A DNA stretch of 64,000 nt from Cyanobacteria bacterium FACHB-471 (GTDB lineage: Bacteria > Cyanobacteriota > Cyanobacteriia > Elainellales > Elainellaceae), in NCBI GenBank assembly GCA_014695345.1, contig JACJOC010000058.1:372001-436000 (forward strand), written 5' to 3'. A program made the translations under genes and the position numbers. Position 1 is the first letter of the stretch. The number at the start of each line of letters is the position of its first letter. This document shows positions 35,701 to 59,855 of this stretch, piece by piece. Under the pieces are notes generated by a model. The model was given only the letters and a program-made list of their open reading frames with translations. It made no database searches and was not told where the DNA came from.

Positions 35701-36087
35701 TTAACTCAACTCACTCTATTGTATTTGTCTAAAACTCAGGTAACAGACCTATCAGCCTTGAGCGGATTAACTCAACTCGCTCGATTGTATTTGTCTGGAA
35801 CTCAGGTAACAGACCTATCAGCCTTGAGCGGATTAACTCAACTCGCTCGATTGGATTTGTCTGGAACTCAGGTAACAGACCTATCAGCCTTGAGCGGATT
35901 AACTCAGCTAGAAGAATTGGATTTGTCTGGAACTCAGGTAACAGACCTATCAGCCTTGAGCGGACTAACTCAGCTCATTCTATTGAATTTATCTGAAACT
36001 CAGATAACAGACGTGTCATGTCTAAAGCATTTACACAGTCTCACGATTTTGGGGAGAGGACGACAAACTAAACAAAGAGGTCGTTAG
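32785..36087 (+). CDS. NACHT-domain STAND NTPase with leucine-rich repeats (bacterial NLR-like)
   Basis: The 1100-residue protein has a helical N-terminal region (1-270) and a NACHT NTPase. Walker A is GGAGAGKST (280-288, Lys286) and Walker B is LVLIDGVDEL (Asp365, Asp368, Glu369). A TSRPSG sensor follows near 397 and a winged-helix/helical arm contains FAHRTFQEYLAAKAAL. After about 180 residues of helical repeats, 13 complete 22-residue leucine-rich repeats occupy 798-1083. The layout mirrors animal NLRs. Related bacterial NACHT proteins (bNACHT, Avs-like) defend against phage by sensing a ligand with the C-terminal repeats. No nuclease or pore-forming effector is recognised at the N-terminus. 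CGGAG precedes the ATG. Confidence 0.92.
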   Translation: MSLSLLALKIIGPPVAKRLLELFNINSSLTNAVLEQAIDVGVDEVLSSSEARKTLSQQIDQVAKQLAADLQPLFEYEARDVEHNSRTAILLGVAETLIKARLSSDTLAELNFDAARLKQYLLQANPSTTRLFSQGETALYHQAIEVVSQRLIEAAPEVEGFELSSASVTLQRLSEIVRHIEDQREQATRAADNFAVRYRGIVQSELDRLEVFGLQRMDRLTSRQSLSTAYITLSVSGPRDEGEKTALTLMDDERSERDAGRRSRQVDEVLCECRRLVIRGGAGAGKSTLLQWLAVRAATQDFQGKLQHWNYKIPFFIRLRNLVDKAFPTPEKFPALTAPNCAALMPSPDWVHQYLDHGQALVLIDGVDELPRQERQDFLEALKDLVRDFSEAIYIVTSRPSGLKDAQGEVWQEWEDWVEAQDFVNLNMEPMSPTNIEEFVVRWHSALPADTSSSDQSINPTQMAGNLKSQLRQRSELRRLASTPLLCAMICALHRERRETLPSARLQLYRECIEMLLDRRDAGRGIPLDETYPIGLNELQKTDLLQSLALKLMRLNRSDLEADRVDDHFATELKNTSLPPSVTGKQIRELFVDRAGLLREPIVGQIDFAHRTFQEYLAAKAALDDDSLEELLQKVMDDQWRESIIVAAGLARPKERAKLLKFLLDQGDNQPDNKHYLHLLAVACLETTTSVDQEIRDRVLASVEKLLPPQDDDEIAMVSRAGNEIVPLLKYERHYSADEACNCIGALVQIGTPTAMQLLVDYAKATFESEDDQHSIGRAIGRGWDIFDQNTFLPNVLTHLKILDLGETQISDVSPLKNLTQLTRLDLDETLVTDVSHLSGLTQLKELYLFKDQVIDLSALSGLTQLTLLHLSETQVTDLSALSGLTQLKELYLSGTQVTDLSALSGLTQLTLLYLSETQVIDLSALSELTQLTRLDLSKTQITDLSVLSGLTQLALLDLSETQITDLSVLSGLTQLTLLYLSKTQVTDLSALSGLTQLARLYLSGTQVTDLSALSGLTQLARLDLSGTQVTDLSALSGLTQLEELDLSGTQVTDLSALSGLTQLILLNLSETQITDVSCLKHLHSLTILGRGRQTKQRGR
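35176..36033 (+). repeat. 66-bp leucine-rich-repeat array (13 units)
   Basis: Thirteen 66-bp units encode TQLxxLxLSxTQVTDLSALSGL-type repeats. Units 9-12 (about 35704-35967) are nearly identical in DNA, while the exposed positions of each beta strand vary. See the finding on patterned variation. Confidence 0.9.
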
Positions 36088-44836: not shown

Positions 44837-46300
44837 ATGGTTGCACTCTCCCCCAACTTAGCTAAAGTCAAGGCATCTCTGACCGAAAAGGTGCTGTTTG
44901 GTAACGAACCCAGCCCTGAACTGGTCGCGATTCTGCTGGTTTACTTCGTACAAGGCATCCTTGGGTTAGCGCGGCTGGCAATTAGCTTCTTTCTAAAAGA
45001 TGAGTTGGGGCTGAGTCCAGCAGAAGTATCTGCCTTGATGGGAGTTGCAGCCCTGCCCTGGATTATCAAACCAGTATTTGGCTTCGTTTCAGATGGCTTG
45101 CCACTGTTTGGCTACCGTCGTCGTCCTTATCTGATTCTCTCTGGACTGTTAGGAACTGCCTCCTGGTTGGGACTGGCATTCTTCGCTCATTCCGCTCTGA
45201 CGGCGACTGTGGCGATCGCCCTTAGCTCCCTTTCTGTAGCGGTCAGCGACGTAATTGTAGACTCCCTCGTGGTCGAGCGTGCCCGTGCAGAAGATCTTGC
45301 CAAAGCGGGTTCGCTGCAATCCGTTTGCTGGGGAGCGTCCGCCTTGGGCGGGCTAATGACGGCTTATTTTAGCGGCTTTTTGTTACAACACTTCAGCACT
45401 CATACCGTCTTCATTATCACAGCGACCTTTCCACTGATCGTCTCCTTAGTTGCTGGATTAATTGCGGAGTCAAGAGTTGACCACACCTCCGAATGGTCGG
45501 CAGTCCGGCAGCAGGTAAAGCAGTTGCGTGGCGCAATTGGTCAGAAATCCATTTGGATGCCGACGGCGTTTCTGTTCCTGGCGCAGGCTACACCGACGGC
45601 TGAATCTGCTTTCTTCTTCTTCACGACCAACGAACTGGGGTTTGAGCCAGAGTTTTTGGGACGGGTTCGACTGGTGACTAGTGTTGCTTCACTTGCCGGT
45701 ATCTGGATGTTTCAGAGGTTTTTCAAGACTGTTCCCTTTCGCGTAATTTTTGGCTGGACGATGGTGATCTCCGCCGTCCTGGGAATGACGATGCTGCTGT
45801 TGGTAACTCATGCAAATCGGGCGATCGGTATTGACGATCGCTGGTTTAGCCTGGGTGACAGTCTGATTTTGACGGTCATGGGTCAAATTGCCTATATGCC
45901 AGTGCTGGTTTTAGCCGCACGTCTATGCCCTCCGGGAGTGGAAGCCACCCTATTTGCTTTGTTAATGTCTGTAACGAACCTGGCGGCTCTGCTGTCCTAT
46001 GAGTTTGGGGCGGTGATGATGCATTGGTTGGGCGTAACTGAGACAAATTTTGAGCGTCTCTGGCTGTTGGTTGTCATCACCAACCTGAGTACGCTGTTGC
46101 CTTTACCCTTTTTGGGGTTACTGCCCAATGCTCAAGCTGAGGAGTCAAGTATGGATTTATCAGAAACCGTTGCTCTGCCTCCATCTTCAGCTCCTAAAGT
46201 GGAAGCCGATGCGACCGACCTACATCCCGTAAAAAAGCAGTTGATTCCGCTAGTTTCTCAATCTAATCTGCCTCAAACCGTTGAAGAGGCGCTCGAATGA
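44837..46300 (+). CDS. Folate/biopterin transporter (BT1 family)
   Basis: The 487-residue protein has about 12 membrane helices of the major-facilitator type. Conserved BT1 blocks include VYFVQGILGLARLAISFFLKDELGLSPAEVSALMG, ALPWIIKPVFGFVSDGLPLFGYRRRPYL, VSDVIVDSLVVERAR and LQSVCWGASALGGL. A cyanobacterial member of this family has been shown to carry folates, so import or export of folates or pterins is likely. The final 60 residues are a polar cytoplasmic tail. The stop lies 20 bases before the carotenoid oxygenase start, so the two genes probably share an mRNA. Confidence 0.9.
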   Translation: MVALSPNLAKVKASLTEKVLFGNEPSPELVAILLVYFVQGILGLARLAISFFLKDELGLSPAEVSALMGVAALPWIIKPVFGFVSDGLPLFGYRRRPYLILSGLLGTASWLGLAFFAHSALTATVAIALSSLSVAVSDVIVDSLVVERARAEDLAKAGSLQSVCWGASALGGLMTAYFSGFLLQHFSTHTVFIITATFPLIVSLVAGLIAESRVDHTSEWSAVRQQVKQLRGAIGQKSIWMPTAFLFLAQATPTAESAFFFFTTNELGFEPEFLGRVRLVTSVASLAGIWMFQRFFKTVPFRVIFGWTMVISAVLGMTMLLLVTHANRAIGIDDRWFSLGDSLILTVMGQIAYMPVLVLAARLCPPGVEATLFALLMSVTNLAALLSYEFGAVMMHWLGVTETNFERLWLLVVITNLSTLLPLPFLGLLPNAQAEESSMDLSETVALPPSSAPKVEADATDLHPVKKQLIPLVSQSNLPQTVEEALE

Positions 46301-46319
46301 GTACGGAGCAATTTCATTT

Positions 46320-47852
46320 ATGCAAAGTTTTCAGCTTCACGAACACGCGACTTCTGTTCCAGTTAATTCATATCAGCTTGAAGAGTGGCAGAAGGGGTAT
46401 GAGTCTCTTCGGGAGGAATTTGACTACTGGATCGATCAGGTTGAAGGAGAAATTCCGCCTGATTTAGAAGGAACCCTATTTCGTAATGGCCCGGGCTTGC
46501 TGGATGTCGGTGGGCAACCCTTGCAGCATCCGTTTGATGGCGACGGCATGATTAGTGCGATCGCCTTCTCCCAAGGAAAAGCCCATTTCCGCAACCGCTT
46601 CATTCGAACTGAAGGCTTTTTAGCAGAACAAAAGGCACAAAAAATTCTTTATCGGGGCGTATTTGGCACTCAAAAGCCAGGAGGCTGGCTAGCCAACGCC
46701 TTTGACTTTCGGTTGAAAAATATCGCCAATACTCAGGTAATCTACTGGGGTGGCAAACTACTAGCTCTGTGGGAAGCCGCAGAACCGCACCGACTTGATC
46801 CCCATACGCTCGAAACCATCGGAATTGATCACCTAGACGGAGTGTTGAAGCCAGGCTCAGCCTTTGCTGCTCATCCCTGCATTGACCCATCCTGCGCTGA
46901 AGATGGGGGTGCGCCCTGCCTGGTCAACTTCTCGATTAAGCCGGGGCTTTCTACGACAATTACCATCTTTGAGCTGGACGAGCAGTGCAAAGTAATCCGT
47001 CAACACGCTCACGCAGTTCCGGGTTTTGCTTTCATCCACGACTTTGCAATTACGCCAAACTACTGCATCTTTTTCCAAAACCCGGTTCACTTCAATCCAG
47101 TGCCATTTGTGGTGGGATTACGGGGTCCTGGGGAATGCATTCAGTTTCAGGGCGATCGCCCCACTCAAATCATTGTCATCCCGCGCCACGGCTCAGCCCC
47201 TGTGCAGACTTTGTCTACTCAGTCAGGCTTTGTATTTCACCATGCCAATGCCTTTGAGCAGGATGGCTATCTGTACGTCGATTCTGTTTGTTACGGCGCG
47301 CTTCCGTCGGTCGAGCCAAATGCAGATTACCGTCAGGTCAAATTTGAGGAGCTAGAGCCGGGGCAGCTTTGGCGCTTTCGACTCGACCTCAAAGCTAATA
47401 CCGTCGAGCGACAGTCAATCGAAAGCCGCTGCTGCGAATTTCCCTTTGTGCATCCTAATCGGGTTGGACGTCCCTACCGCTATGTTTATCTTGGCGCTGC
47501 CCATGCTGCTGAGGGCAACGCGCCACTTCAGGCAATTCTCAAAATAGATATGGTTTCAGGTAAGCGGCAAGTATGGAGCGCTGCACCGCACGGCTATGTC
47601 GGCGAACCCATCTTTGTGCCTCGCCCACCCGCTACGTCTGCGACCGAACAATTTGAGGCAAATGGTAAAGCATTAGACGATGAAGATCGGGGATGGGTGC
47701 TTACACTGGTCTACGACGCGAAGATGGAGCGCTCTGAGTTGGTCATTCTGGATGCTAAAGATTTGACAAAGGAACCTGTGGCTCGACTGCAGTTAAAGCA
47801 TCATATTCCCTACGGACTTCATGGTAGCTTTACATCAACTTGTTTTCTCTGA
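46320..47852 (+). CDS. Carotenoid oxygenase (RPE65/CCD family)
   Basis: 510 residues from the ATG at 46320; a TTG at 46281 would overlap the transporter gene. The seven-bladed propeller family is shown by GTLFRNGPGLLDVGG, FDGDGMISAI and the iron-binding His positions in FAAHPC, FAFIHDFAITPNY, VFHHANAFEQDG and the last IPYGLHGSF. It would cleave carotenoids or apocarotenoids to retinal-type products using O2 and Fe(II). The VHPNRVGRPYRYVYLGA and GYVGEPIFVPRP segments are typical of cyanobacterial members. Coupling with a folate-type transporter is unexplained. Confidence 0.92.
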   Translation: MQSFQLHEHATSVPVNSYQLEEWQKGYESLREEFDYWIDQVEGEIPPDLEGTLFRNGPGLLDVGGQPLQHPFDGDGMISAIAFSQGKAHFRNRFIRTEGFLAEQKAQKILYRGVFGTQKPGGWLANAFDFRLKNIANTQVIYWGGKLLALWEAAEPHRLDPHTLETIGIDHLDGVLKPGSAFAAHPCIDPSCAEDGGAPCLVNFSIKPGLSTTITIFELDEQCKVIRQHAHAVPGFAFIHDFAITPNYCIFFQNPVHFNPVPFVVGLRGPGECIQFQGDRPTQIIVIPRHGSAPVQTLSTQSGFVFHHANAFEQDGYLYVDSVCYGALPSVEPNADYRQVKFEELEPGQLWRFRLDLKANTVERQSIESRCCEFPFVHPNRVGRPYRYVYLGAAHAAEGNAPLQAILKIDMVSGKRQVWSAAPHGYVGEPIFVPRPPATSATEQFEANGKALDDEDRGWVLTLVYDAKMERSELVILDAKDLTKEPVARLQLKHHIPYGLHGSFTSTCFL

Positions 47853-49599: not shown

Positions 49600-51201
49600 T
49601 TAATTCCTATTATCCAAAAGCTGCCGCAGCTTTGGGTAATCGACTTTAGCATTGTGGCGTTTGTCTACTGGGATTTTTTTGACGATTTTGTAGTTTTGGA
49701 TTTGTGCCCAGACAAGAGTTTTGTGGAGTGCATGGAGGGGCGATCGCTGATCGTCTACATTCGTCCAGCCTTTACTCGTAACGCCCGACTTGGGCTCAAT
49801 CACTAACACTCTCTGCTCATTCTGCTGCACCACTGCCGTTCGGCGAATGGCTGGATGCAAAGAGGCGGCTGTCTCAACAGCGAAAGGATAAAGAATACCC
49901 AACTTGTCCTGAATTCGGGCACTACAGCGCCCTAGCAGCCACACCCGTCCTTGAGTATCCAGGTAGCCTTCGTCGCCGGTGCGGTGCCAGATGACTCCAT
50001 TCACCTGGAATTTGGTTTCTTCATTGCCTCGTCCGTGCAGGTAGCTAGACAGAACGTGCGCGCCCCTAACGACGATTTCCCCTGCTTGCTTTGGGGGTAG
50101 ACAGACTGCATCAAATTCGGTTTGAGAATAGGCACCGATGGGATTTCCCCACTGATGCGGCAAGATTCGCAGTTGAATTTCGGGTACGGGCAAGCCTGCA
50201 AGTAGTCCCTGTCCCTGAGCCATTTGCTCCAGGTCATGAGGCTGGATTTGCTGCCGCGAAATGTGGGCGATCGGCTCGGCTTCGGTGGAGCCGTAGACAG
50301 CGGTAACTTTAGCTTGAGGGGCGATTTGCTGCAATTGTTCTAACAGTTGCGGAAAGACAGGCGCACCCCCACTGAAGATGTTTTCAAAGCTAGGCAGGGT
50401 TAGTTTTTGGGTTTGGCAGTGCTCTACCAGACGCGCCAGAAATGCAGGAGAAGCAGCGGTGCTGTGAGGCTGGTAAGTTTGAATCTGCTGGACCACATGA
50501 CTGGCATTCACCTTGCCTGGAAAGCGTAGGTTTGCATTGGGGATCAAGCTGGTTACGCCAGATGCCAAATTCGCTAGAGCAAAGATGGGCAAGGTAGTTA
50601 GGTCAATTTTTCCAGCGGTTAGTTCCAGATTTTTCTGGAGAACTCGATGCTGAGCAATTAAGAATCCGTGCGATCGCACTACTGCCTTGGGTTGCCCGGT
50701 GCTGCCACTAGTGAAGGTCAACAGGGCTGGCGTGTCTGCCGTAATAGAAGCAATTTGGGTCAGCGGTTGTAACCTCTGAGCCGATTCCCAGCGTTTCGCA
50801 CCGGGAACGGGGAAACCGATTGAGTATTTAACTGAAATTTGCTGGAGAGCAGGCGATCGCACCCTCAGCAAATGCGCTTTAGAACTGGCAATGAGTGCCT
50901 GAGGCGGATAGAGGGCGCAGCACCGTTCCAGATGTTCCTGTCCGGCAGATGGATCGAGGAACATGGCTACCATTCCCAGTTGGAAGACTGCCATCAGCGC
51001 CACATAAAGCTGTGCTGACATGGGCTGGAAAATCAATGCTGCATCACCGGCCCTCAGTCCTGACTGCTGCAACAGCGCGGCAGCCTGATTTGCGAACTGT
51101 AGCAACTCTGCAAATGTTAGAGAGCCAAATCGAGGATCGATGATGGCTACTGTATCAGGTTGAGTTTTTGCCTGACTCTGAAGGATTTCAGCAATATTCA
51201 T
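49600..51201 (-). CDS. AMP-forming acyl ligase (fatty acyl-AMP/CoA ligase-like)
   Basis: The 533-residue ANL-superfamily enzyme has the P-loop LLTFTSGSTGQPKAVVRSHG, the aromatic/TE motif VYGSTEAEPIAHI, the ribose Asp in WHRTGDEGYLDTQGRVWLLGR and a near-terminal catalytic Lys in KRHNAKVDYPKL. It activates a carboxylate as acyl-AMP, then passes it to CoA or another acceptor. The F.ALANLASGVTSL segment is OleC-like, but no OleABD is present. It follows the GNAT gene by nine bases. The substrate is presumably the product of the upstream lipid-type genes; this is inference. Confidence 0.88.
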   Translation of the reverse strand: MNIAEILQSQAKTQPDTVAIIDPRFGSLTFAELLQFANQAAALLQQSGLRAGDAALIFQPMSAQLYVALMAVFQLGMVAMFLDPSAGQEHLERCCALYPPQALIASSKAHLLRVRSPALQQISVKYSIGFPVPGAKRWESAQRLQPLTQIASITADTPALLTFTSGSTGQPKAVVRSHGFLIAQHRVLQKNLELTAGKIDLTTLPIFALANLASGVTSLIPNANLRFPGKVNASHVVQQIQTYQPHSTAASPAFLARLVEHCQTQKLTLPSFENIFSGGAPVFPQLLEQLQQIAPQAKVTAVYGSTEAEPIAHISRQQIQPHDLEQMAQGQGLLAGLPVPEIQLRILPHQWGNPIGAYSQTEFDAVCLPPKQAGEIVVRGAHVLSSYLHGRGNEETKFQVNGVIWHRTGDEGYLDTQGRVWLLGRCSARIQDKLGILYPFAVETAASLHPAIRRTAVVQQNEQRVLVIEPKSGVTSKGWTNVDDQRSPLHALHKTLVWAQIQNYKIVKKIPVDKRHNAKVDYPKLRQLLDNRN

Positions 51202-51210
51202 TGAGCCATT

Positions 51211-52206
51211 TTATGGAGTGAGCGACTTGGCAAATAGGGTGTAGCCACGAATCGTCTGAGCATAGTGGCGGCTCAGGCTACGAGAATTGTTTTCATCGTG
51301 CATCAGAGCATGAATGGCGCGGCTGTAACCTCGTTGGTGGGCGATCGCCTGACATTCAGCAACCAAAAAATTTCCCAGTCCGGCATATTGGCGATCGGGC
51401 AACACCGCTACTGTTTTGATGATGACGGTACTAATTTTCTCGCCCCGCTTTGCCTGGAATAGATCGGGGATCGCAAACAAAAAGCCAACCAATCGCCCCT
51501 CATGCTCTGCCATCAGCACCAACTCAGGCTGAAGGTGGGGAAGTATCTGACTGTACTGAGCGGCGAACTCAGGGAAAGCAATCGGCGTGTAAAGAAAATT
51601 TTGGCGAAAACTGGTGAGACAGAGGCGATAAATTTTTTCTAGCTCTGAGCCAAACTGCTGGAGGTTGAGCGATCGCACCCTTACCTCCAATTCTTCTAGC
51701 CGCCCTGCAACCCGTTCCAATCGAGGATCTTGCTGAGTCAAATCAGAATTTATGGCAGAGCTATAGTGAGCCAACGTTGTAAACTCCTGTGCCCAAAACT
51801 GATCGCACCATTCATCTGGATTATCCGGCTCCAAAAAGAAAATTGGCTCACTGCCCCGCTCGCTCAGCAACCGATAGCGTCGCCAGGTATTGCCATCTAT
51901 TGGAGCGACTGCCATTGTGCAGCCCTGTTCCAACAACTGCTGGCAGGCATGGTCGAGCAGCCGATGAGCAGCGTCCGCATTCCAAACTGCGTAATGCCCG
52001 ATTAATCCTAGTTTCTGCTCAGGATAAGGGGGAACATTTCTCCACCAAAGAGAGCAGCGCCCGGCAATCGCTCCCTCCTCGACTAACACCCAATGAGCAT
52101 CCGGCGAATGGCTCACAAAACTTTGAGCATCCAAAGCAGACAGCCCACTCAACCTGGATAATTCTGTAAGCTGATTTGAGTTCTCAATCTGAAGAAATTG
52201 GTACAT
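51211..52206 (-). CDS. GNAT-superfamily acyltransferase-like protein
   Basis: 331 residues from the ATG at 52206; a TTG at 52215 is an alternative. The C-terminal half has the GNAT fold with ELVLMAEHEGRLVGFLFAIPD and the acyl-CoA pyrophosphate loop VIIKTVAVLPDRQYAGLGNFLVAECQAIAHQRGYSRAIHALMHDENNSR. The N-terminal half (VLVEEGAIAGRCSLWW, LGLIGHYAVWNADAAHRLLDHACQQLLEQGCTMAVAPIDGNTWRRYRL) looks like a second, degenerate GNAT unit. It may acylate an amine in the pathway encoded by the operon. It starts just after the stop of the kinase-like gene. Confidence 0.8.
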   Translation of the reverse strand: MYQFLQIENSNQLTELSRLSGLSALDAQSFVSHSPDAHWVLVEEGAIAGRCSLWWRNVPPYPEQKLGLIGHYAVWNADAAHRLLDHACQQLLEQGCTMAVAPIDGNTWRRYRLLSERGSEPIFFLEPDNPDEWCDQFWAQEFTTLAHYSSAINSDLTQQDPRLERVAGRLEELEVRVRSLNLQQFGSELEKIYRLCLTSFRQNFLYTPIAFPEFAAQYSQILPHLQPELVLMAEHEGRLVGFLFAIPDLFQAKRGEKISTVIIKTVAVLPDRQYAGLGNFLVAECQAIAHQRGYSRAIHALMHDENNSRSLSRHYAQTIRGYTLFAKSLTP

Positions 52207-52218
52207 TGGAGCCAAGCT

Positions 52219-53676
52219 CTAAAACCGCAACAGATATGGAACTAACCCCAAAATTGAACCGATCGCTGTATACCCAGCACGACAGAGCCAGTTGAGCGTA
52301 TCGGTAGGGCGTTTTCGCAGAAAAGGTTGGGTGAAATAGTAGGCGATCGCAGGTAAAGCAATGCCCACCAGCGACACTAGTACACAGAAGACAGACGTAG
52401 GGGATAGTCCTTCTAATAACAGCAACGGAGCAAACATGAGTAGCCACCCTTTAACCACATAGGTGGTTAGCAGCGTCAGGTTAGTGGGTTTCCAGTAGTT
52501 CAAAGGTGACATGCCAGCGATGCCGATGATGGCAAGGTTTGCAGCAAAGGAGAGGGTGTAGGGGTAGAGAAATTCGGGGCGATTGAATGTGCCAAATAGA
52601 AATAACCAGAACAACCCCGCAGCCGCAACGCTCAACACCGCATAGATGTTATGAATTCTCTCCCAATGGGCATTCGGACTTTTGGAATCACTTTCTGACG
52701 GTAGCCAGGGCATTGCCTGCCGCTCTTCTAGCGTAAGTGGGATTTCTCGCTGCTTAATCCAGGAAATGAGCAGTGGATAGGTGAGAAACAAAATGGCCGG
52801 CGCCAGCAGCCATTGCCAACCGCCCAAGGTCCAACTGAGATAGCCGATGAAAGCAGTTCCCAGCAGCGCACTGTCGTTGAGCGTAGTGCGCTGTCGCCAG
52901 CACAGCACAAACGTAACCAAAATCAGGGTGACGATGAGCCGCACGAGTAGCGTCAGTGCATCCATTTCCAGGTAAAGCTTGAGCAAAATGAAGCCGCCCA
53001 GAGGAATGAATAGGTTGTCTAATCCCTGCCAGGCGATCGCCTCAATTAGCATCACCAACAGTCCCAGAATTAGCGCAATCAGCAGGGTTTCTGCCCGTCC
53101 AATATCAGTCAACAGCAACAGCGGAATGTGAACACTAAGAAAGGCAATTGTGAAAAAGGTGATAGAACCTTCTGCGCTCTTGTATCCATCCGTAGTGGTG
53201 TAGTGAAACTGCCCATAACGCACGCCAATTACTGCCGCAACGGCATCTGCCAGGGTCAGAATCAGCATGGGAATGCAAAATAGCAGCGGGTCGCCCTGCG
53301 ACAGCAAAAACAATACGCCTACGGAAATGGGAAAGTAAATTTCACCGAGCGATCGCCTGCCCACGCCGCCTAAGACGCTGCCTAGTCGGATCGTTAGTGG
53401 TTTGTAGAGTCGCAGTGCCAGCAACCAAACAATAGCGATCCCGGCTAGCACCAGCACGGGCAGCGTTTCGCTAAACAGCCAGGGAAAGCTGAGCGTGATC
53501 AGCCCCATTGGAATGTGCAGCAACTTCCGCACCAGTTCTGGATGAGGGGAGAAGTGGTACTGATAAACTCGCAGTCCAACCATTAGCCCGACCAGCGTAG
53601 ATAGAACTAAGCCCATTGCAAGCCAGGGGTTCAGTGAGGCGGAGAGAGGGAAGAGGGACAGAGAGGAAGGGGTCAT
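52219..53676 (-). CDS. Dolichol/phytol-kinase-like integral membrane protein with extra C-terminal membrane domain
   Basis: The 485-residue protein has about 14 membrane segments. The first half carries SEC59/VTE5-type CTP-dependent kinase signatures: VRKLLHIPMGLITL, GGVGRRSLGEIYFPISV, LTLADAVAAVIGVRYG and YKSAEGSITFF. That implies phosphorylation of a polyprenol, phytol or farnesol-like alcohol. The second half contains LNDSALLGTAFIGYLSWTLGGW, faintly like the start of DUF92 (VTE6, phytyl-phosphate kinase); this is a weak resemblance. Neighbours overlap it by four bases on one side and lie 12 bases away on the other. Confidence 0.82.
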   Translation of the reverse strand: MTPSSLSLFPLSASLNPWLAMGLVLSTLVGLMVGLRVYQYHFSPHPELVRKLLHIPMGLITLSFPWLFSETLPVLVLAGIAIVWLLALRLYKPLTIRLGSVLGGVGRRSLGEIYFPISVGVLFLLSQGDPLLFCIPMLILTLADAVAAVIGVRYGQFHYTTTDGYKSAEGSITFFTIAFLSVHIPLLLLTDIGRAETLLIALILGLLVMLIEAIAWQGLDNLFIPLGGFILLKLYLEMDALTLLVRLIVTLILVTFVLCWRQRTTLNDSALLGTAFIGYLSWTLGGWQWLLAPAILFLTYPLLISWIKQREIPLTLEERQAMPWLPSESDSKSPNAHWERIHNIYAVLSVAAAGLFWLFLFGTFNRPEFLYPYTLSFAANLAIIGIAGMSPLNYWKPTNLTLLTTYVVKGWLLMFAPLLLLEGLSPTSVFCVLVSLVGIALPAIAYYFTQPFLRKRPTDTLNWLCRAGYTAIGSILGLVPYLLRF

Positions 53677-54770
53677 TTGATGATTTCCTCTACGATGAAG
53701 GCGCTGTAGAAGAAGGCTTTATCCTGAGCGTGGAGGGATTGTGCTAGTTCGGTCAACGGTTGGAGTTGGTCTGCCATTGCTGCAGGTCTGCTGCGAGGCA
53801 CAAGCATATTCCAATAGGCTAGCCGTCCGCCTGGGCGACCTGCTTTAACCAGGCGTTGCAGCAGTTGGTGATAGTGGTCAGGCGAGAGATATTCAAAGAT
53901 GTCACTGAGGTTGTAGTGGTTGATGACGTTCTCGCCAACGGTGTCTAAGAAGTTCTCCAGGGAAGTGCAGTGCCATTCCAGGCGATCGAGGTTATTGCGA
54001 ATTGCGTCAAAGTTTTCTGGACGCAGGGCGTAGGATAAGGCGGTGAGGTGCTGCCCGGTGAGAATCCACTGGAGGTAAGGGTTCTCGGCTGGATCTAAGG
54101 CAGTGAGGGCATAACGGGTTCTTTCTAGAATGCGATCGCCCACACGACCTTCCACATATTTGAAAAAGCTGGGATCGCGTCCCAGTCCCATCACAAAGCG
54201 CGAGAAGAACAGGCGAAACAGCGATCGCCAGCGCCAGGTGTCCCAGTCTTGCTGATAGAAAGTTTGGCGTTGTTCGAGAGTGCCACCTTTGAGCAAGCGA
54301 TTCACTTGTTCTCGGTGATGGATCAGAGGCAAAATGTAGCGACGAAAGATAGCGAAGTAACGTTCAAATCGTCCAGCCTCACCGATGCCTTTGCGAATTG
54401 CGGTACTCCTACGATCCCAAAACTGCTGCACATCGCCCGAAAGCTGCTTACGACAGCGTTGATATAGGGCTTCTCGGTCTTTACCCGATCGAGACCCAAT
54501 CAGAATCAGCAGTTCATCATGACTCAGTTCTCGGTAGGCAGCGACTCGCAGTTCCAGGCAGGCAAGCTGAGCGGAACTCAGATCCAGAGCTATCACCCGC
54601 TCTGGACTGCGGCTCAGCATTGCCAGAGCGTTATCCCCGGCTGAGGCGATGGATAGACACACCTGTCCTGGCTGAATGTCTAACGCTTGCAGCAAGATAT
54701 CGGCATCTTCCCAAACCTGAGCGTAGCGAATTTGAGAAAAGTCAGCGCGGGCTGCAATTTCACTGTCCAT
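53673..54770 (-). CDS. DUF3419 / BtaA-like 3-amino-3-carboxypropyl transferase
   Basis: The 365-residue protein opens FSQIRYAQVWEDADILLQALDIQPGQVCLSIASAGDNALAMLSRSPERVIALDLSSAQLACLELRVAAY, the SAM-binding block of DUF3419. It ends VINHYNLSDIFEYLSPDHYHQLLQRLVKAGRPGGRLAYWNMLVPR. The family includes BtaA, which moves the aminocarboxypropyl group of SAM to diacylglycerol in betaine-lipid synthesis. No btaB-type methyltransferase is fused or adjacent, so the acceptor here may differ. TGGAGGT precedes the ATG. It overlaps the dikinase gene by 11 bases. Confidence 0.85.
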   Translation of the reverse strand: MDSEIAARADFSQIRYAQVWEDADILLQALDIQPGQVCLSIASAGDNALAMLSRSPERVIALDLSSAQLACLELRVAAYRELSHDELLILIGSRSGKDREALYQRCRKQLSGDVQQFWDRRSTAIRKGIGEAGRFERYFAIFRRYILPLIHHREQVNRLLKGGTLEQRQTFYQQDWDTWRWRSLFRLFFSRFVMGLGRDPSFFKYVEGRVGDRILERTRYALTALDPAENPYLQWILTGQHLTALSYALRPENFDAIRNNLDRLEWHCTSLENFLDTVGENVINHYNLSDIFEYLSPDHYHQLLQRLVKAGRPGGRLAYWNMLVPRSRPAAMADQLQPLTELAQSLHAQDKAFFYSAFIVEEIIK

Positions 54771-57534
54771 TGCCGACCTCCACCAGAGGTGAGGCAGAAT
54801 CAGACGAATTGGGGGAAGGGGTAATTTCTTGGGAATAGTCCTGGGCGATCACCTCCACCGCGATCCGTCGCACGATCCCCGTGCTGCCGTCCATCTCTAC
54901 CCAGTCGCCATCTTTGAGCCACTGAGTCACCTGGGGAATCGAGACGATCGCCGGAATGCCCATCTCCCGTGCCACGATTGCGGAATGAGACAGCAAACTA
55001 CCCCGCTCAACCAGCAGCCCTGCTGCTGCCGGAAACAGCATAATCCAACCGGGATCGGTGCGTTCTGCAACTAAAATGCTGCCTTGGCGAAGAGTTGCCT
55101 GTCTGGGATCAGTGATCACCTGCACGGGCGCACGAACGATTCCAGGACAACAGCCTGTACCTTTCAAAGAGTCTCCGCTGGCAGGTTTCACTGTAGCTTT
55201 AGGCTGGAATGAGTTTTGGTAGACGATGCCGTGAGTTTCAAAGCGATCGCCCGGAGCAGGCAACTGCCGATAGCGCGCAAATTCTGCCTGTCGTAGAGCG
55301 ACCAATCCTTTTAAGTCAGTGCAGGTCGCAGTACCGTCAATGAAACTGAGGATTTCGTCCAATTCCAGGTAAAAAATATCTCTGGGTGAGTTTAGTACGT
55401 CCTGCCCATAGAAACATTTGCCCAGTTCTACAAATACCTGGCGGGTACGACCAAACAGGCGAGTGCGTTCAAATCGCAGGTTTTCGCGATCGCGCACTCG
55501 TTCTCTGGCATTTTTCAACACCCAAGAGAAAATCAGACGGCGTAAAGGATGTCCTTGGAGAGATTGTTTTACCGTTGCCTCGGCTTGTTGTCTTAGGGAA
55601 GTGGTTGCGTTGAGCTCCTTAAATTCCCGTTGAAAAGGGAAACTTTGAGTTTGAGACTGCGCCAGTTGTCCCACCGATCGCAACAGCACTAGGGGATCAT
55701 CATAAAGAGTGGGGCTTTCGAGCTTGAGTTCTTCTAGACAGCGATCGCCAAATTTCTGCAAATATTCCTGATACGGCTGATGAAAAGCTGGGATCAGTTC
55801 TATTTGAGGGAGAATCTGATCGAGCGATCCCGTGCACAGCAGTTGTACAAACGTCTGATCTTGAGTTGCGATCGCCGCAAGCTGCTGCACTCTATGGGCG
55901 GGTTCTGCGCTGATCATGCCCCCCTCACCGCTGACCAGATCGTTTTGCAGCGTTCCCTCCGTGTCGCTACACCACTGAGTCGTCAGTTTTCGCAACACGC
56001 CGTAAAAGATCATCGCGAAGAAATCGTTGACTAGCGGTGCATCCCAGCGGGTGAGCAGTTGTCTCTCCAGGCTGCGGTAATAGGTTGCCAGTTCATTGGG
56101 TCGCATTTCCGCTAAACCAGCCGGAAGATGAGATAGGTTTAACGCCCGTTCTAGCCGTTGATAAAATAGTTGAATTTGCTGGGGCAGGGTGAAATAGTTT
56201 TTCAGCAGCCCTGCAATGCTGCTAACTAACCGAAAACTGTCCTGTAACCGGGCTTTCCAGTTTGCTCCGGTTAGCTCTGTCAGAATCTCGGCAGGCAGTT
56301 CTTCCCGAACGCCCATCATTTGCTCCATAAAGCGGCGGTTGACGGTGAATCCAGGCAGCAGTGCCAGCACCCGATACCAGCTCAACAGGTTGTAGTAGAT
56401 GCGTCCCTGCACTAAGCCCAACATGCGGCGGAAGGTGCTGTCGTGCTGGGCGATCGCCCCTTCTGGCACGCCCATGATTCGGCAAAACTGACGATAAACT
56501 TCCTCATAGGCGCGACGGGCAAAGGAAAAAGTCAGCGGAGTAGTAACTCCGCCATAGCTTTCAGCAATGTTGCTGTTGTCCCAGAGATTTAGCACTCCGT
56601 CAGGGTCGGGCATCTGCGCCAGAGCGGTAATCGGTCGGGCTTGTAGCAAATACAGCTTGCCGGATGGGTCGATCGCCCATTCGATATCCTGGGGACGACC
56701 AAAGTGCGCTTCAACTTGACGGGCAAGGTTGGCGATCGCCCGAATTTGCTCATTGGTGAGAGCGGACTGCCGTACCAGCACTGAATCCACTTCGACGGAC
56801 GCAATTTCTTGACGGTTGGGAACATAGCGGTGCGCCGATCGCTTTTCTGCGATCTGCTGACTCACGATTTCACCCGCCCGATTCACCTGATAGCTATCTG
56901 CATCCACTTCTCCCGATACCAGGGCTGTTCCCAGTCCATAAACGGCTGAAACTAGGGCGATCGCTCTTTGCCCAGTCACGGGATTGGCGCTAAAGGCAAC
57001 CCCCGAAACTTGGGCATCTACCATTACCTGAACCAGCACCGCTGGAGCCGTAGGGAGATCAAGCTGGTTTTCCTGACGGTAGGCGAGCAGGCGATCGCTA
57101 AACCCCGAGCGCCACACGTCCACAATCCGTTTTGCTACATCTTGCGGTTCGACAAACAAGAAACTATCCAGTTGTCCTGCAAAGGAGTACTGCGCTCCAT
57201 CTTCGTCAATGGCTGAAGATCGCACAGCAAGTCGTTCGCCTTTAGGGCAAAGTGTAGCTAGAGCAATTCTCAATTCTGCTTGAACAGATTCACTGAGGTG
57301 AAGGTTGTCAAGGGCTGTGCGAACCTCTTTTTGGGAAAGGGGCGATCGTTCAGCCTCAATCAAACTGTGATCAGCTAAACCGTGATCAGCTAAACTCCGG
57401 TCAAAAGCAGTTGGAGTTACGACAAACCAGCCAGGAATTGATAATTTTTTTGGGGCTAATGCTGACAGTGCACCAGCCTTGCCCCCCAGCTGATTAGCCG
57501 CGTTTGCATCACTGGCTTGAAGAATAAAGCTCAT
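54760..57534 (-). CDS. PEP-synthase-like dikinase with rifampin-phosphotransferase-type domain order
   Basis: In this 924-residue protein, residues 1-310 form a PPDK/PEP-synthase ATP-grasp with ANQLGGKAGALSAL, RLAVRSSAIDEDGAQYSFAGQLDSFL, FSANPVTGQRA and DIEWAIDPSGKLYLLQARPI. A long middle domain (about 320-770) follows. The swivelling His domain is last: ILVAERTDPGWIMLFPAAAGLLVERGSLLSHSAIVAREMGIPAIV, with His850. The PEP/pyruvate TIM barrel of true PEP synthase is absent. This order matches rifampin phosphotransferase-type enzymes, which move a phosphate via His to a small-molecule hydroxyl. AGGAGGG precedes the ATG. Substrate unknown. Confidence 0.87.
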   Translation of the reverse strand: MSFILQASDANAANQLGGKAGALSALAPKKLSIPGWFVVTPTAFDRSLADHGLADHSLIEAERSPLSQKEVRTALDNLHLSESVQAELRIALATLCPKGERLAVRSSAIDEDGAQYSFAGQLDSFLFVEPQDVAKRIVDVWRSGFSDRLLAYRQENQLDLPTAPAVLVQVMVDAQVSGVAFSANPVTGQRAIALVSAVYGLGTALVSGEVDADSYQVNRAGEIVSQQIAEKRSAHRYVPNRQEIASVEVDSVLVRQSALTNEQIRAIANLARQVEAHFGRPQDIEWAIDPSGKLYLLQARPITALAQMPDPDGVLNLWDNSNIAESYGGVTTPLTFSFARRAYEEVYRQFCRIMGVPEGAIAQHDSTFRRMLGLVQGRIYYNLLSWYRVLALLPGFTVNRRFMEQMMGVREELPAEILTELTGANWKARLQDSFRLVSSIAGLLKNYFTLPQQIQLFYQRLERALNLSHLPAGLAEMRPNELATYYRSLERQLLTRWDAPLVNDFFAMIFYGVLRKLTTQWCSDTEGTLQNDLVSGEGGMISAEPAHRVQQLAAIATQDQTFVQLLCTGSLDQILPQIELIPAFHQPYQEYLQKFGDRCLEELKLESPTLYDDPLVLLRSVGQLAQSQTQSFPFQREFKELNATTSLRQQAEATVKQSLQGHPLRRLIFSWVLKNARERVRDRENLRFERTRLFGRTRQVFVELGKCFYGQDVLNSPRDIFYLELDEILSFIDGTATCTDLKGLVALRQAEFARYRQLPAPGDRFETHGIVYQNSFQPKATVKPASGDSLKGTGCCPGIVRAPVQVITDPRQATLRQGSILVAERTDPGWIMLFPAAAGLLVERGSLLSHSAIVAREMGIPAIVSIPQVTQWLKDGDWVEMDGSTGIVRRIAVEVIAQDYSQEITPSPNSSDSASPLVEVGNGQ

Positions 57535-57564: not shown

Positions 57565-58512
57565 TTAACTGGCAAATTCCCGCAGCAGTACTGGAACAAT
57601 TCCCAAACATAGATAAATGGTTAACGCCCAAACCCCAGATACCAGATCAATTCTCGTTGCCCACTGCCGCACGGGGTGATACCAAAACCGCCACGCCACA
57701 AACACTGCTGCTGTCAACAACAACAGCAAAACAATGGTGAATAGTGGAGCAAAGCGGATATATAGCGCTGCCAAAAGAGAGGCAAGTGTGGTCAGCCAAA
57801 TCGCACCCAACCAGGCTCTAACTGCGTTCTGTCGCCCCCACAAAGCAGAATAGGTTTCCACACCCCGTTCCTCATCCTTGGGAGCACGAATTTTGCGCCC
57901 AATCTCAAGCACCAACCCAATGAAATAGCTGACGACGGCAAACCATATTACCCCTTGCGATGGCGGAACACCTGCTGACAGCCAATCACAAGCGGTCGCA
58001 GACAGCGCAATCAGCGGCATAATCACCATGTGGCTCAGCATATACGCAACGGGATGAGCCTTGAGCCAGGTGGGTACAAAAAACTCTTTGGTCATTAGAC
58101 CGAGATAGCCCCACACCAGCAGCAAAAGTGGTGCCAAAAAGGGAGACAGCGCCAGTGTTAACCCTAGCTGAATAAAGGCGCTGCTAATGCCAACAATGCC
58201 CAGTTCCTTGAGCGACACTAGACCTCGCGGTACGGCACGGTAAGGGCGATAGCGGAAATCATCGGCATAATCTTTAAATTCGTCGGCAATGCGTAATTGG
58301 AGAAAAAATAAGAAGGTAATTAGGAAAGCAATGCAAGCTGCTCCAAAAGTTTGTAGAGAGGTTCTACCTTCAATTGGTCCGCGCAGCAAGGCTGAATAGC
58401 TGACTGCAGAAAAGCTAAAACAAGCAATCAGCAGTCCGTTTTTTACTAAGGGGAACCGTTCTTGTAAATACGTCCACCAGCGTCCCAGAATGTTTTGCAA
58501 TCGTTCGAACAT
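57565..58512 (-). CDS. UbiA-family prenyltransferase
   Basis: The 315-residue protein has about eight membrane helices. The first Asp-rich loop reads LQLRIADEFKDYADDFRYRPYRAVPRGLVS, and the second EIGRKIRAPKDEERGVETYSALWG; these bind the Mg-diphosphate of the prenyl donor in UbiA enzymes. HPVAYMLSHMVIMPLIAL lies in the core. The aromatic or other acceptor is unknown. It sits 14 bases after the HMG-CoA reductase gene and 30 bases before the dikinase gene, so it is almost certainly cotranscribed with both. Confidence 0.87.
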   Translation of the reverse strand: MFERLQNILGRWWTYLQERFPLVKNGLLIACFSFSAVSYSALLRGPIEGRTSLQTFGAACIAFLITFLFFLQLRIADEFKDYADDFRYRPYRAVPRGLVSLKELGIVGISSAFIQLGLTLALSPFLAPLLLLVWGYLGLMTKEFFVPTWLKAHPVAYMLSHMVIMPLIALSATACDWLSAGVPPSQGVIWFAVVSYFIGLVLEIGRKIRAPKDEERGVETYSALWGRQNAVRAWLGAIWLTTLASLLAALYIRFAPLFTIVLLLLLTAAVFVAWRFWYHPVRQWATRIDLVSGVWALTIYLCLGIVPVLLREFAS

Positions 58513-58526
58513 GTTTACGGATTTGA

Positions 58527-59855
58527 TCAGGTTTCTTTAGGTTGAGCCACAGATTGAGCTGCTTTGCCACGGGCAAGCCGTTGATGGGCACGGGTAAACT
58601 CACCGGAGCAAAGCGCTCCAATGATAGACAGCTCTCCTGCCAATAGCAGTCCTGCACCGACTTCAGCAAAAGCCTTGGCATTACCGGCTCCAGCTAGCCC
58701 CAAAATTTCTAGACATGCCTGCTGGCTAGGTAAGCTTGTGCCTCCTCCCACCGTGCCCACAATCAGATTTGGTAGTGTCACCACAGCATAGAGTGCCCCG
58801 GTTTCGGTAACTTCAAAGCGGGTGACTCCAACGGCAGATTCAGCAACACAGGCAGCATCTTGCCCACAAGCAATATACAGTGCAGCTAACCCATTCGCGT
58901 AGTGCCCCTGAATGCCAATTGTGCCCGTTAATGTGCCACCGATCGCCGACATCTGCCAGTAGTTGACCATCTGCTTTGGGGTCGTGTGCAGCCGCTTTTG
59001 CACCAAGTCTGCGGGGAGGGTGACTTCAGCGGTGACTTTTTTGCCACGCACTGAAAGAAAGGATTGGGCACTGGCTTTTTTGTCTCCAGATAAATTCGCT
59101 TCAACAAATGAATACTGAGGCTGAATCGGAGAGTGGGCTTGAATGTAGTCCAAAATTGCCTGAGTCGCGATCGTCGCCATGTTTTGTCCGGCTGCATCAC
59201 CCGTAGTGAACTGGAAGTCGAGATAGACGTGATTGCCTTCAACGGTGATTCGCAAGTCAGTGAGTTTGCCGTAGCGGGTTGTGGATTCGGCGCATTGTTT
59301 GAATTGAGGCTGGTGGGCGATCGCCCACACCATAAACTGCCCCACTTCTGCCAAGTTGCAAAAAGCAAACCCAGGCGCACGGCTAACCCCTTCATTCAGC
59401 AAGACTGCGGTACAGCCTCCTGCCTCGCTAATCAGTTGACTGCCGCGATGGTAGGAGGCAACCAATGCTGCCTCAGTCGTCGCCAAGGGAATGTAGTAGT
59501 CACCCTGAGCAAACAGCCCATTAACCCGCAGTGGTCCAGCCACCCCTACTGGAACCTTGACTGTACCGATGAAGTTTTCGATATTGCAGCGATAGCACTC
59601 CATTTGCTGTAGCGTCTGAGCATCGGCTAAAGCTGCCTGAGTCATAGGCTTTGCCTGAAGAATTTGCCAACGCCGCGCAATGGTTTCGGGAGTTAAGCGT
59701 GACCCACCGGGTATCTTGGGCGATGGATGGGTTTGCTTAGCTGCAAGCTGTTGCTTCAGCTGTTCAAGATTGGTCTGCGAGGGCGGCAACCCATCTAGCT
59801 GAGGTTGCAGCAAACATTCCAGATATTCACTAGCGTGGCGATAATGAGTTGACAT
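58527..59855 (-). CDS. HMG-CoA reductase (class I-type)
   Basis: The 442-residue protein has ENFIGTVKVPVGVAGPL (92-109), catalytic Glu128 in LATTEAALVAS, the NADPH motif TTGDAAGQNM (217-226), catalytic Lys259 in SGDKKAS, Asp333 in CGQDAACV and His424 in TRAHQRLARG. Every catalytic position of class I HMG-CoA reductases is therefore kept. No membrane anchor is present, as in archaeal forms. It would reduce HMG-CoA to mevalonate with NADPH. This is unusual for a cyanobacterium, which uses the MEP route; no HMG-CoA synthase or mevalonate kinase is in the window. It is the first gene of the operon; AAAGG lies upstream. Confidence 0.93.
   Translation of the reverse strand: MSTHYRHASEYLECLLQPQLDGLPPSQTNLEQLKQQLAAKQTHPSPKIPGGSRLTPETIARRWQILQAKPMTQAALADAQTLQQMECYRCNIENFIGTVKVPVGVAGPLRVNGLFAQGDYYIPLATTEAALVASYHRGSQLISEAGGCTAVLLNEGVSRAPGFAFCNLAEVGQFMVWAIAHQPQFKQCAESTTRYGKLTDLRITVEGNHVYLDFQFTTGDAAGQNMATIATQAILDYIQAHSPIQPQYSFVEANLSGDKKASAQSFLSVRGKKVTAEVTLPADLVQKRLHTTPKQMVNYWQMSAIGGTLTGTIGIQGHYANGLAALYIACGQDAACVAESAVGVTRFEVTETGALYAVVTLPNLIVGTVGGGTSLPSQQACLEILGLAGAGNAKAFAEVGAGLLLAGELSIIGALCSGEFTRAHQRLARGKAAQSVAQPKET

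What the first reader, a model, noticed from the sequence alone, without database searches (positions are those of the whole stretch)
58527..59855. Complete class I HMG-CoA reductase in a MEP-pathway organism
Glu128, Lys259, Asp333 and His424 are all present, so the enzyme should be active. Cyanobacteria are known to make isoprenoids through MEP. With no other mevalonate gene in view, it either supplies mevalonate as a building block or reduces a different acyl-CoA.
Basis: partly seen in the sequence, partly recalled or inferred. Interest (0 to 1): 0.7.

Follow-up and report, generated by a model that had tools for sequence, protein, structure and literature searches.

The report
HMGR-like acyl-CoA reductase heading unknown operon
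The gene looks like the cholesterol-pathway enzyme HMG-CoA reductase, but it more likely makes a long-chain alcohol for an unidentified lipid built by a seven-gene operon that occurs in several distantly related bacterial groups.

Summary
Window 58527-59855 (-) encodes a 442-aa class I HMG-CoA reductase-fold protein with all four catalytic residues. No HMG-CoA synthase was detected in the genome, and its three GHMP kinases are GalK, ThrB and IspE: MEP, not mevalonate.

It is probably not an HMG-CoA reductase. Ser684 is Glu252, Lys735 is lost and Leu862 is Phe420. The same three sites distinguish FcrA, a proven HMGR-derived fatty acyl-CoA reductase (PMC11948995). The protein forms its own branch, though, apart from the one carrying Trp862.

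All or most recur beside relatives in Chloroflexota, Pseudomonadota, Bacteroidota and Armatimonadota. Of 388 cyanobacterial genomes, 16 have the reductase and 15 of these also the UbiA. Operons without the reductase exist too. No paper listed in my searches describes it.

The parts
58527..59855 (-). HMGR-fold, FcrA-like acyl-CoA reductase, 442 aa; first gene of the operon
   Evidence: PF00368 380.9 bits; class I by PDB matches; trees
59472..59474 (-). codon of Glu128, catalytic (human Glu559)
   Evidence: alignment
59100..59102 (-). codon of Glu252 in place of human Ser684 (HMG-binding pocket)
   Evidence: Glu also at this site in N. pharaonis FcrA
59079..59081 (-). codon of Lys259, catalytic (human Lys691)
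   Evidence: alignment
58950..58952 (-). codon of Met302, opposite human Lys735 in one alignment; a gap falls there in another. Residues 295-306 hold no Lys
58857..58859 (-). codon of Asp333, catalytic (human Asp767)
   Evidence: alignment
58596..58598 (-). codon of Phe420 in place of human Leu862 (Trp in the other HMGR-like group and in N. pharaonis FcrA)
58584..58586 (-). codon of His424, catalytic (human His866)
   Evidence: alignment
57565..58512 (-). UbiA-superfamily transferase, 315 aa, with DExKDxxxD acidic motif
   Evidence: PF01040 6.3e-12; model pLDDT 93.6; Foldseek best match archaeal lipid synthase 6m31 E 2.4e-5; VIA-align 4od5 Z 19.7; motif invariant in the 16 rows of A2
54760..57534 (-). 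dikinase-type phosphotransferase, 924 aa: ATP-binding domain 14-307, unassigned middle, phospho-His domain 816-886; no PEP-binding barrel match
   Evidence: only PF01326 and PF00391 at E<=0.001; best NCBIfam match is a PEP synthase model, NF004881, 814.5 bits, below its cut-off of 883; closest PDB sequences 5fbs, 5hv2, 5hv1; His850 in SHSAIV and AVRSS motif
53673..54770 (-). DUF3419 protein, 365 aa; BtaA-like, predicted SAM-dependent aminocarboxypropyl transferase (function recalled)
   Evidence: PF11899 241.8 bits
52219..53676 (-). integral membrane protein, 485 aa; residues about 36-241 phytol/dolichol-kinase-like (CTP-dependent lipid-alcohol kinase, inferred)
   Evidence: no Pfam match; homology to a VTE5-like paralog in the same genome (the name is recalled); weak fold match to CDP-DAG synthetase 4q2e Z 7.7
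51211..52215 (-). GNAT-family transferase, 334 aa, TTG start as listed
   Evidence: PF00583 6e-12
49600..51201 (-). AMP-binding ligase, 533 aa, PRK09274/OleC-like
   Evidence: PF00501 3.4e-57; NF006754 395.9 bits, below its cut-off of 478

Best explanation
The gene encodes an FcrA-like enzyme: the HMGR fold and catalytic machinery, but a pocket refitted for another acyl-CoA. It most likely uses 2 NADPH to reduce a long-chain acyl-CoA (possibly 2,3-unsaturated or branched) to the primary alcohol, by the HMGR mechanism (Glu128, Lys259 and Asp333 at the thioester carbonyl, His424 protonating CoA). That alcohol is probably a lipid building block of the seven-gene operon. The inferred order is: ligase or host acyl-CoA; reductase to alcohol; phytol-kinase-like protein, perhaps with the dikinase-type phosphotransferase, to phosphate and diphosphate; UbiA transfers the activated chain to an acceptor; the BtaA-like protein adds a 3-amino-3-carboxypropyl (homoserine-type) head; GNAT acylates it. 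Shown: the fold, the residues, the operon and its conservation, the co-occurrence, and that mevalonate partners were not detected. Inferred: the substrate, every step after the reductase, and the product.
For: Catalytic residues kept, while Ser684 is Glu, Lys735 has no Lys counterpart and Leu862 is Phe. The FcrA paper names these three sites as different between HMGR and FcrA; its printed 'Lys795' must be Lys735, since its Lys367 to Gly411 is 44 residues, as is 691 to 735, and human 795 is Cys. Glu684 is in 20 of 20 window-type rows and Phe862 in 19 of 19 that reach that site. HMGR equivalog cut-off missed. HMGS in 0 of 13 genomes; no mevalonate kinase over cut-off in the own genome. Operon gaps -11 to +30 bp. 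16 of 20 window-type loci, the window included, have at least one operon gene beside them, against 0 of 14 Trp862-type loci (Fisher 2e-6). All seven genes are at one locus in the window, L008, L012, L013 and L014. A divergent HMGR-like branch (Asp684 in 6 of 6) sits with operon genes in 4 of 6 loci, and so does the split Asp684-type gene of G025 (L109). In 388 Cyanobacteriia genomes: reductase 16, UbiA 26, both 15 (Fisher 3e-19, not corrected for kinship). G023 keeps six of the seven genes at four separate places (GNAT not searched). Of the 8 Trp862-type genomes searched, none has the UbiA (E 1e-10) or the phosphotransferase (E 1e-60).
Against: No assay. No characterised FcrA sequence was available for the tree, and the window group does not join the Trp862 group with support. 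Phe, not Trp, is at 862, and the N-terminus is about 108 residues shorter than in N. pharaonis FcrA, so no Lad carrier domain. Twelve of 14 Trp862-type proteins keep Ser684, so Glu684 does not by itself mark fatty-acyl specificity. Operons without a reductase exist: G035 and G106 and G532, and I recognised no other reductase in its place. Vibrio maerlii has the reductase but neither the UbiA nor the phosphotransferase at the thresholds used. UbiA enzymes normally need allylic diphosphates (recalled), which a saturated fatty alcohol would not give. The best NCBIfam name for gene 3 is PEP synthase, a near miss. Genome G011 (Bacteroidota), which has the operon, also encodes a diphosphomevalonate decarboxylase over cut-off (L051).
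Confidence: 0.63

Rival explanations
1. It reduces a different, non-fatty acyl thioester (an isoprenoid acid-CoA such as a phytenoyl- or geranylgeranoyl-CoA, a hydroxy- or branched-acyl-CoA, or an acyl-ACP) to an allylic or branched alcohol that the kinase and UbiA then use.
For: UbiA and phytol-kinase-like proteins normally handle prenyl chains (recalled; relations). In G023 the reductase lies beside a gene for another UbiA-family protein that looks by eye like a homogentisate phytyltransferase (L079). Phe instead of Trp at 862 suggests a pocket unlike that of characterised FcrA.
Against: No direct evidence on the substrate. The assayed homolog Pb-FcrA showed NADPH oxidation only with acyl chains of 14 carbons or more.
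Confidence: 0.22
2. A true HMG-CoA reductase that makes mevalonate as a building block or for export.
For: Class I fold, full catalytic tetrad, and Arg590, Lys692, His752 and Asn755 kept.
Against: Ser684 and Lys735 not kept, equivalog cut-off missed, HMGS and mevalonate kinase not detected.
Confidence: 0.07
3. Wax-ester FcrA in the ordinary sense, feeding a wax ester synthase.
For: Family relation to FcrA; in one related locus an HMGR-like gene sits beside WS/DGAT (L017).
Against: WS/DGAT (PF03007) in 0 of 16 genomes searched, the own one included (the control set rang nowhere, so this is weak). The window branch is separate from the Trp862 branch that holds L017.
Confidence: 0.05

Closest known systems
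FcrA, HMGR-derived fatty acyl-CoA reductase (Natronomonas pharaonis, Ca. Promineifilum breve; PMC11948995)
   Same: HMGR fold and catalytic Glu/Lys/Asp/His; Glu at 684; Lys735 lost; aromatic bulky residue at 862; no mevalonate pathway detected in the genome
   Different: Phe instead of Trp at 862; no Lad carrier domain; own branch in the tree; sits in a seven-gene operon; activity untested
Canonical class I HMG-CoA reductase (human, plant, Methanothermococcus 6hr7)
   Same: fold, catalytic tetrad, Arg590, Lys692, His752, Asn755
   Different: Ser684 and Lys735 not kept; DAMGMNM motif is DAAGQNM; no pathway partners detected
Prenyl-alcohol salvage for tocopherol: phytol kinase then UbiA-type homogentisate phytyltransferase (recalled)
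   Same: pairs a phytol-kinase-like protein with a UbiA transferase
   Different: here the alcohol would come from an HMGR-fold reductase, and BtaA-like, GNAT and ligase steps are added
BtaA (DUF3419) betaine-lipid head-group enzyme (function recalled)
   Same: PF11899 over nearly the whole protein
   Different: no methyltransferase partner among the seven genes by the Pfam scan; acceptor unknown
Rifampin phosphotransferase / prodigiosin ligase / PEP synthase relatives
   Same: ATP-binding and phospho-His domains; no PEP-binding barrel match, as I recall for rifampin phosphotransferase
   Different: middle domain without an assigned substrate; RedH, PigC and Rph models far below their cut-offs, PEP synthase model NF004881 just below its own

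Membership tests
Class I HMG-CoA reductase (mevalonate enzyme) | PF00368 fold match over the whole domain | tested here: met
   380.9 bits, profile 2-368 of 368
Class I HMG-CoA reductase (mevalonate enzyme) | Catalytic Glu559, Lys691, Asp767, His866 | tested here: met
   E128, K259, D333, H424
Class I HMG-CoA reductase (mevalonate enzyme) | HMG-pocket residues Ser684 and Lys735 | tested here: not met
   Glu252; Met302 or a gap at 735; the three canonical rows keep both
Class I HMG-CoA reductase (mevalonate enzyme) | NCBIfam equivalog cut-off (TIGR00533) | tested here: not met
   324.5 bits against 441.8
Class I HMG-CoA reductase (mevalonate enzyme) | HMGS and mevalonate kinases in the genome | tested here: not met
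   PF01154 0 of 13 genomes; own GHMP kinases GalK, ThrB, IspE
Class I HMG-CoA reductase (mevalonate enzyme) | Reduces HMG-CoA, statin-sensitive | not testable with these tools
   needs enzyme
FcrA (HMGR-derived fatty acyl-CoA reductase) | Catalytic tetrad conserved | tested here: met
FcrA (HMGR-derived fatty acyl-CoA reductase) | Glu at 684 and Lys735 replaced | tested here: met
   but 12 of 14 Trp862-type rows keep Ser684
FcrA (HMGR-derived fatty acyl-CoA reductase) | Leu862 replaced by a bulky residue (Trp) | tested here: inconclusive
   Phe420: bulky and aromatic, but not Trp
FcrA (HMGR-derived fatty acyl-CoA reductase) | Groups with characterised FcrA in a tree | tested here: inconclusive
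   separate 19-row branch, 100/100 and 100/99; no characterised FcrA sequence was at hand
FcrA (HMGR-derived fatty acyl-CoA reductase) | N-terminal Lad or ACP domain (only in some FcrA, so not defining) | tested here: not met
   catalytic Glu at residue 128 against 236 in N. pharaonis FcrA; one Pfam domain only, residues 59-429
FcrA (HMGR-derived fatty acyl-CoA reductase) | Reduces long-chain acyl-CoA with NADPH | not testable with these tools
   needs enzyme
UbiA superfamily (gene 2) | Fold and acidic motif | tested here: met
   PF01040; model pLDDT 93.6, Foldseek E 2.4e-5 to 6m31; Asp77, Glu78, Asp81, Asp85 invariant in 16 rows
Phytol/dolichol kinase family (gene 5) | Sequence family match | tested here: inconclusive
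   no Pfam match; hhalign probability 99.5 to a VTE5-like paralog whose name is itself recalled and has no Pfam or NCBIfam match
Phytol/dolichol kinase family (gene 5) | CDP-DAG-synthase-like membrane fold | tested here: inconclusive
   4q2e Z 7.7, rmsd 5.2, 165 aligned, tied with membrane pyrophosphatase; no Foldseek match under 0.001

The most novel reading that the evidence does not exclude
An undescribed lipid pathway, spread across bacterial phyla, in which an HMGR-fold enzyme makes a long-chain alcohol, a kinase and a dikinase-type phosphotransferase turn it into an alkyl diphosphate, a UbiA enzyme with archaeal-lipid-synthase-like structure transfers it to form an ether or C-alkyl bond, and a BtaA-like enzyme adds a homoserine head: a hybrid of archaeal ether-lipid, tocopherol and betaine-lipid chemistry with a new class of aminolipid as product.
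Probability: 0.3. Interest if true: 0.82.

Novelty: new variant of a known kind. Interest (0 to 1): 0.58.

Why it matters
Sequence families name this protein an HMG-CoA reductase, which would credit its hosts with mevalonate metabolism that the genome does not support. If the reading is right, the HMGR fold has a biosynthetic use beyond mevalonate and wax esters, inside an operon of unknown product. Two divergent HMGR-like branches sit with the same gene set, and all seven genes occur together in a named strain with a collection number, Neomegalonema perideroedes DSM 15528 (L013), so the product can be looked for directly.

Tried and rejected
Wax-ester role: WS/DGAT in 0 of 16 genomes, but the control set rang nowhere, so absence is not proven. 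Of the 14 Trp862-type loci I scanned the next gene in three only (L017 WS/DGAT, L020 alcohol dehydrogenase, L029 acyl-CoA dehydrogenase).

Displacement test: I looked for another acyl-CoA reductase in the reductase's place in operons that lack it (L105, L110, L135), reading only the first 45-70 residues of each ORF by eye. I recognised none, so the test gave no support.

UbiA-only genomes: of 11 UbiA-positive, reductase-negative Cyanobacteriia genomes I fetched loci of 8. Seven (L136-L142) show the UbiA without any other operon gene in the 12-19 kb fetched; L135 has UbiA, phosphotransferase, DUF3419, membrane protein and GNAT. UbiA alone is thus broader than the operon.

Fold of gene 5: Foldseek gave nothing under 0.001; VIA-align listed CDP-DAG synthetase and membrane pyrophosphatases at tied Z. 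No Pfam or NCBIfam name for gene 5 or for its paralog. No solved relative by sequence for DUF3419 or the UbiA.

Literature: ten searches. I saw the listed rows only, up to 20 of as many as 2,191 papers; none of the listed titles or abstract starts describes this operon. The library is open-access PMC only. Of the FcrA paper I saw the abstract, outline, sections 18-20 and passages; of PMC9426513 passages only. PMC5133447 (a bacterial six-gene cluster with a UbiA gene in algal plastids) I saw in the listing only; its genes, as I recall them, are others.

Rows dropped: L019 (broken gene) is in the residue table but not in the trees. The split HMGR-like gene of G025 (L109), which stands with AMP-ligase, GNAT, DUF3419, phosphotransferase and UbiA, is not in the trees; its two pieces are. 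L112-L115 were missing and were added. The 12 genomes counted were those with E below 1e-30 among the 19 hits; the other 7 (E 6e-9 and weaker) were left out, six of them or their like serving as the class II outgroup. The 30 loci are those its six peptide patterns could reach, so group sizes are no census.

Full report
OBSERVATION. The ORF is exactly where reported, intact, 442 aa, and is the only PF00368 match in a 7.15 Mb genome rated 99.87% complete. The Pfam match covers the whole profile with 380.9 bits, far beyond chance. PDB matches place it with class I enzymes. HMG-CoA synthase was not found in the own genome or in 12 genomes of relatives (0 of 13; the control search rang in 7 of 14 named genomes). 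The own genome's three GHMP-kinase matches are galactokinase, homoserine kinase and IspE. The organism therefore has the MEP marker and no detected mevalonate pathway.

THE POCKET HAS CHANGED. Human Ser684 is Glu252 and Leu862 is Phe420. Human Lys735 lies opposite Met302 in one alignment and opposite a gap in another; residues 295-306 hold no Lys. That Ser684 and Lys735 contact HMG is stated in the FcrA paper. In the residue table 20 of 20 window-type rows have Glu at 684, none has Lys at 735, and 19 of 19 that reach the site have Phe at 862. The NCBIfam HMGR equivalog scores 324.5 against a cut-off of 441.8. The 2025 paper PMC11948995 (abstract, sections 18-20 and passages seen) shows that FcrA, a class I HMGR homolog, reduces long-chain acyl-CoA with NADPH, does not reduce HMG-CoA, and was not inhibited by 10 uM simvastatin. 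It names three differing sites (Ser684 to Glu, a pocket Lys lost, Leu862 to Trp) that may explain this. The printed Lys795 must be Lys735: the paper's Lys367-Gly411 spacing equals 691-735, and human residue 795 is Cys.

NOT SIMPLY FcrA. Trees give a well-supported 19-row window branch (100/100 and 100/99), a 14-row branch in which all have Trp862 (100/99 in both), canonical HMGRs (three rows), and a 6-row branch with Asp684 in 6 of 6 (100/100 and 92/85), from genomes told to be of the same phylum but not the same class. With class II as outgroup, the order of window, Trp862 and canonical branches stays open. One long row, L114, moves between the two trees. No characterised FcrA was among the rows. 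Twelve of the 14 Trp862 proteins keep Ser684, so that site alone is not diagnostic. One of them sits beside a wax ester synthase gene (L017).

THE OPERON. The reductase gene is followed on the same strand by six genes with gaps of 14, 30, -11, -4, 3 and 9 bp: UbiA; an ATP-binding plus phospho-His protein without a PEP-barrel match; DUF3419; a membrane protein; a GNAT; and an AMP-ligase. tblastn of the window proteins on the 30 loci and on later loci shows at least one operon gene beside 16 of 20 window-type reductases, the window included, and beside 0 of 14 Trp862-type ones (Fisher 2e-6). The four exceptions are L009, L010, L079 and L081. All seven genes are together in the window, L008 (Chloroflexota), L012 (Gammaproteobacteria), L013 (Neomegalonema perideroedes DSM 15528) and L014. 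Five or six are together in L002, L004, L005, L011, L015 and L016 (Cyanobacteriota, a deltaproteobacterium, Armatimonadota, Bacteroidota), several of them near contig ends. The Asp684 branch also stands with operon genes in 4 of 6 loci (L082, L083, L113, L115), as does the split Asp684-type gene of G025 with five of them (L109).

CO-OCCURRENCE. In 388 Cyanobacteriia genomes the reductase is in 16 (E 1e-20) and the UbiA in 26 (E 1e-40); 15 have both (Fisher 3e-19, without correction for kinship). Fourteen of the 15 have both on one contig within about 3 kb. The miss, G542, is 85% complete. In 386 genomes of the phylum, 11 of 12 genomes with a clear class I match also have the UbiA, and 9 have the UbiA without it. 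G023, a one-contig genome, has the reductase at 2.62 Mb, UbiA-phosphotransferase-DUF3419 at 0.41 Mb, the membrane protein at 3.64 Mb and the ligase at 0.27 Mb (GNAT not searched), so the association survives without linkage. The genome of L010 has the UbiA and the phosphotransferase side by side on another contig. Of 8 Trp862-type genomes searched, none has either. Results against: Vibrio maerlii has the reductase but neither partner at those thresholds, and G035, G106 and G532 have operon genes but no reductase match.

THE OTHER PROTEINS. The UbiA model is confident (pLDDT 93.6). Foldseek puts an archaeal lipid synthase first (6m31, E 2.4e-5; a second DGGGP synthase entry 7bpu follows). VIA-align gives 4od5 Z 19.7, rmsd 3.6, 267 aligned, with 6m31 at Z 18.6, rmsd 4.9, 279 aligned, so the ranking does not fix the substrate. 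The phosphotransferase has the AVRSS and phospho-His motifs in 11 of 11 unsplit copies read. Its closest solved sequences, 5fbs, 5hv2 and 5hv1, I recall as rifampin phosphotransferases although they are deposited as PEP synthase; its best NCBIfam model is also named PEP synthase, a near miss at 814.5 of 883 bits. The 485-aa membrane protein has no Pfam match. Its residues about 36-241 align with a 241-aa paralog in the same genome, 31% identity, hhalign probability 99.5, whose motifs I recognise from memory as VTE5 phytol kinase. Its predicted fold (pLDDT 78) resembles CDP-DAG synthetase only weakly (Z 7.7, tied with others). DUF3419 as BtaA-type aminocarboxypropyl transferase is recalled knowledge.

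MECHANISM. The best reading is an NADPH-dependent, alcohol-forming acyl-CoA reductase of the HMGR mechanism feeding a dedicated lipid pathway: alcohol, phosphorylation, UbiA transfer, homoserine-type head, acylation. The reductase step rests on a close precedent. The later steps are inference from family names. UbiA chemistry normally needs allylic diphosphates (recalled), so the acyl chain may be 2,3-unsaturated or isoprenoid. That, and the reductase-free operons, are the main open points.

LITERATURE AND NOVELTY. FcrA itself is known. The FcrA paper's main text holds no 'UbiA' or 'gene cluster', and 'cyanobact' only in a reference title; its figures and supplements were not seen. None of the papers listed in ten searches describes this operon; only open-access PMC papers were searched and only listed rows seen. 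I file it as a new variant of a known kind: an HMGR-fold, FcrA-like reductase in an operon of unknown product.

Noticed in passing
L079:3106-5760 (G023): The reductase gene stands divergently beside a gene for another UbiA-family protein (PF01040 1.2e-44) that looks by eye like homogentisate phytyltransferase of the tocopherol pathway.
   Followed up: partly
L141:6983-10076 and L142:1460-4547: A lone UbiA relative sits beside relatives of the alpha/beta hydrolase (54%) and, by eye, the Ser/Thr kinase that flank the operon in the window, as if the operon had shrunk to one gene or grown from it at the same place.
   Followed up: partly
L143 (G468): Operon rearranged: GNAT and AMP-ligase matches lie in one 903-aa frame upstream of the reductase, and DUF3419 plus the membrane gene are on the other strand.
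   Followed up: no
L105, L110 (G106, G035; about 2 Mb genomes): UbiA-phosphotransferase-DUF3419-membrane protein-GNAT-ligase operons without an HMGR-like gene.
   Followed up: partly
L002:7549-10448, L003:12265-14921, L019:5029-5818: Phosphotransferase frames (L002, L003) and a reductase gene (L019) are split in metagenome contigs; assembly errors and real decay were not told apart.
   Followed up: no
window 32785-36087 (+): 1100-aa protein that by eye has a P-loop NTPase-like middle and a long run of near-identical leucine-rich repeats (LTQLxxLxLSxTQVTDLSALSG).
   Followed up: no
window 46281-47852 (+): Carotenoid-cleavage-oxygenase-like protein (by eye), beyond the last gene of the operon.
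   Followed up: no
PDB 8djk: In animals HMG-CoA reductase binds the UbiA protein UBIAD1; here an HMGR-fold gene is next to a UbiA gene. Probably coincidence, as the bacterial protein has no membrane domain match.
   Followed up: no
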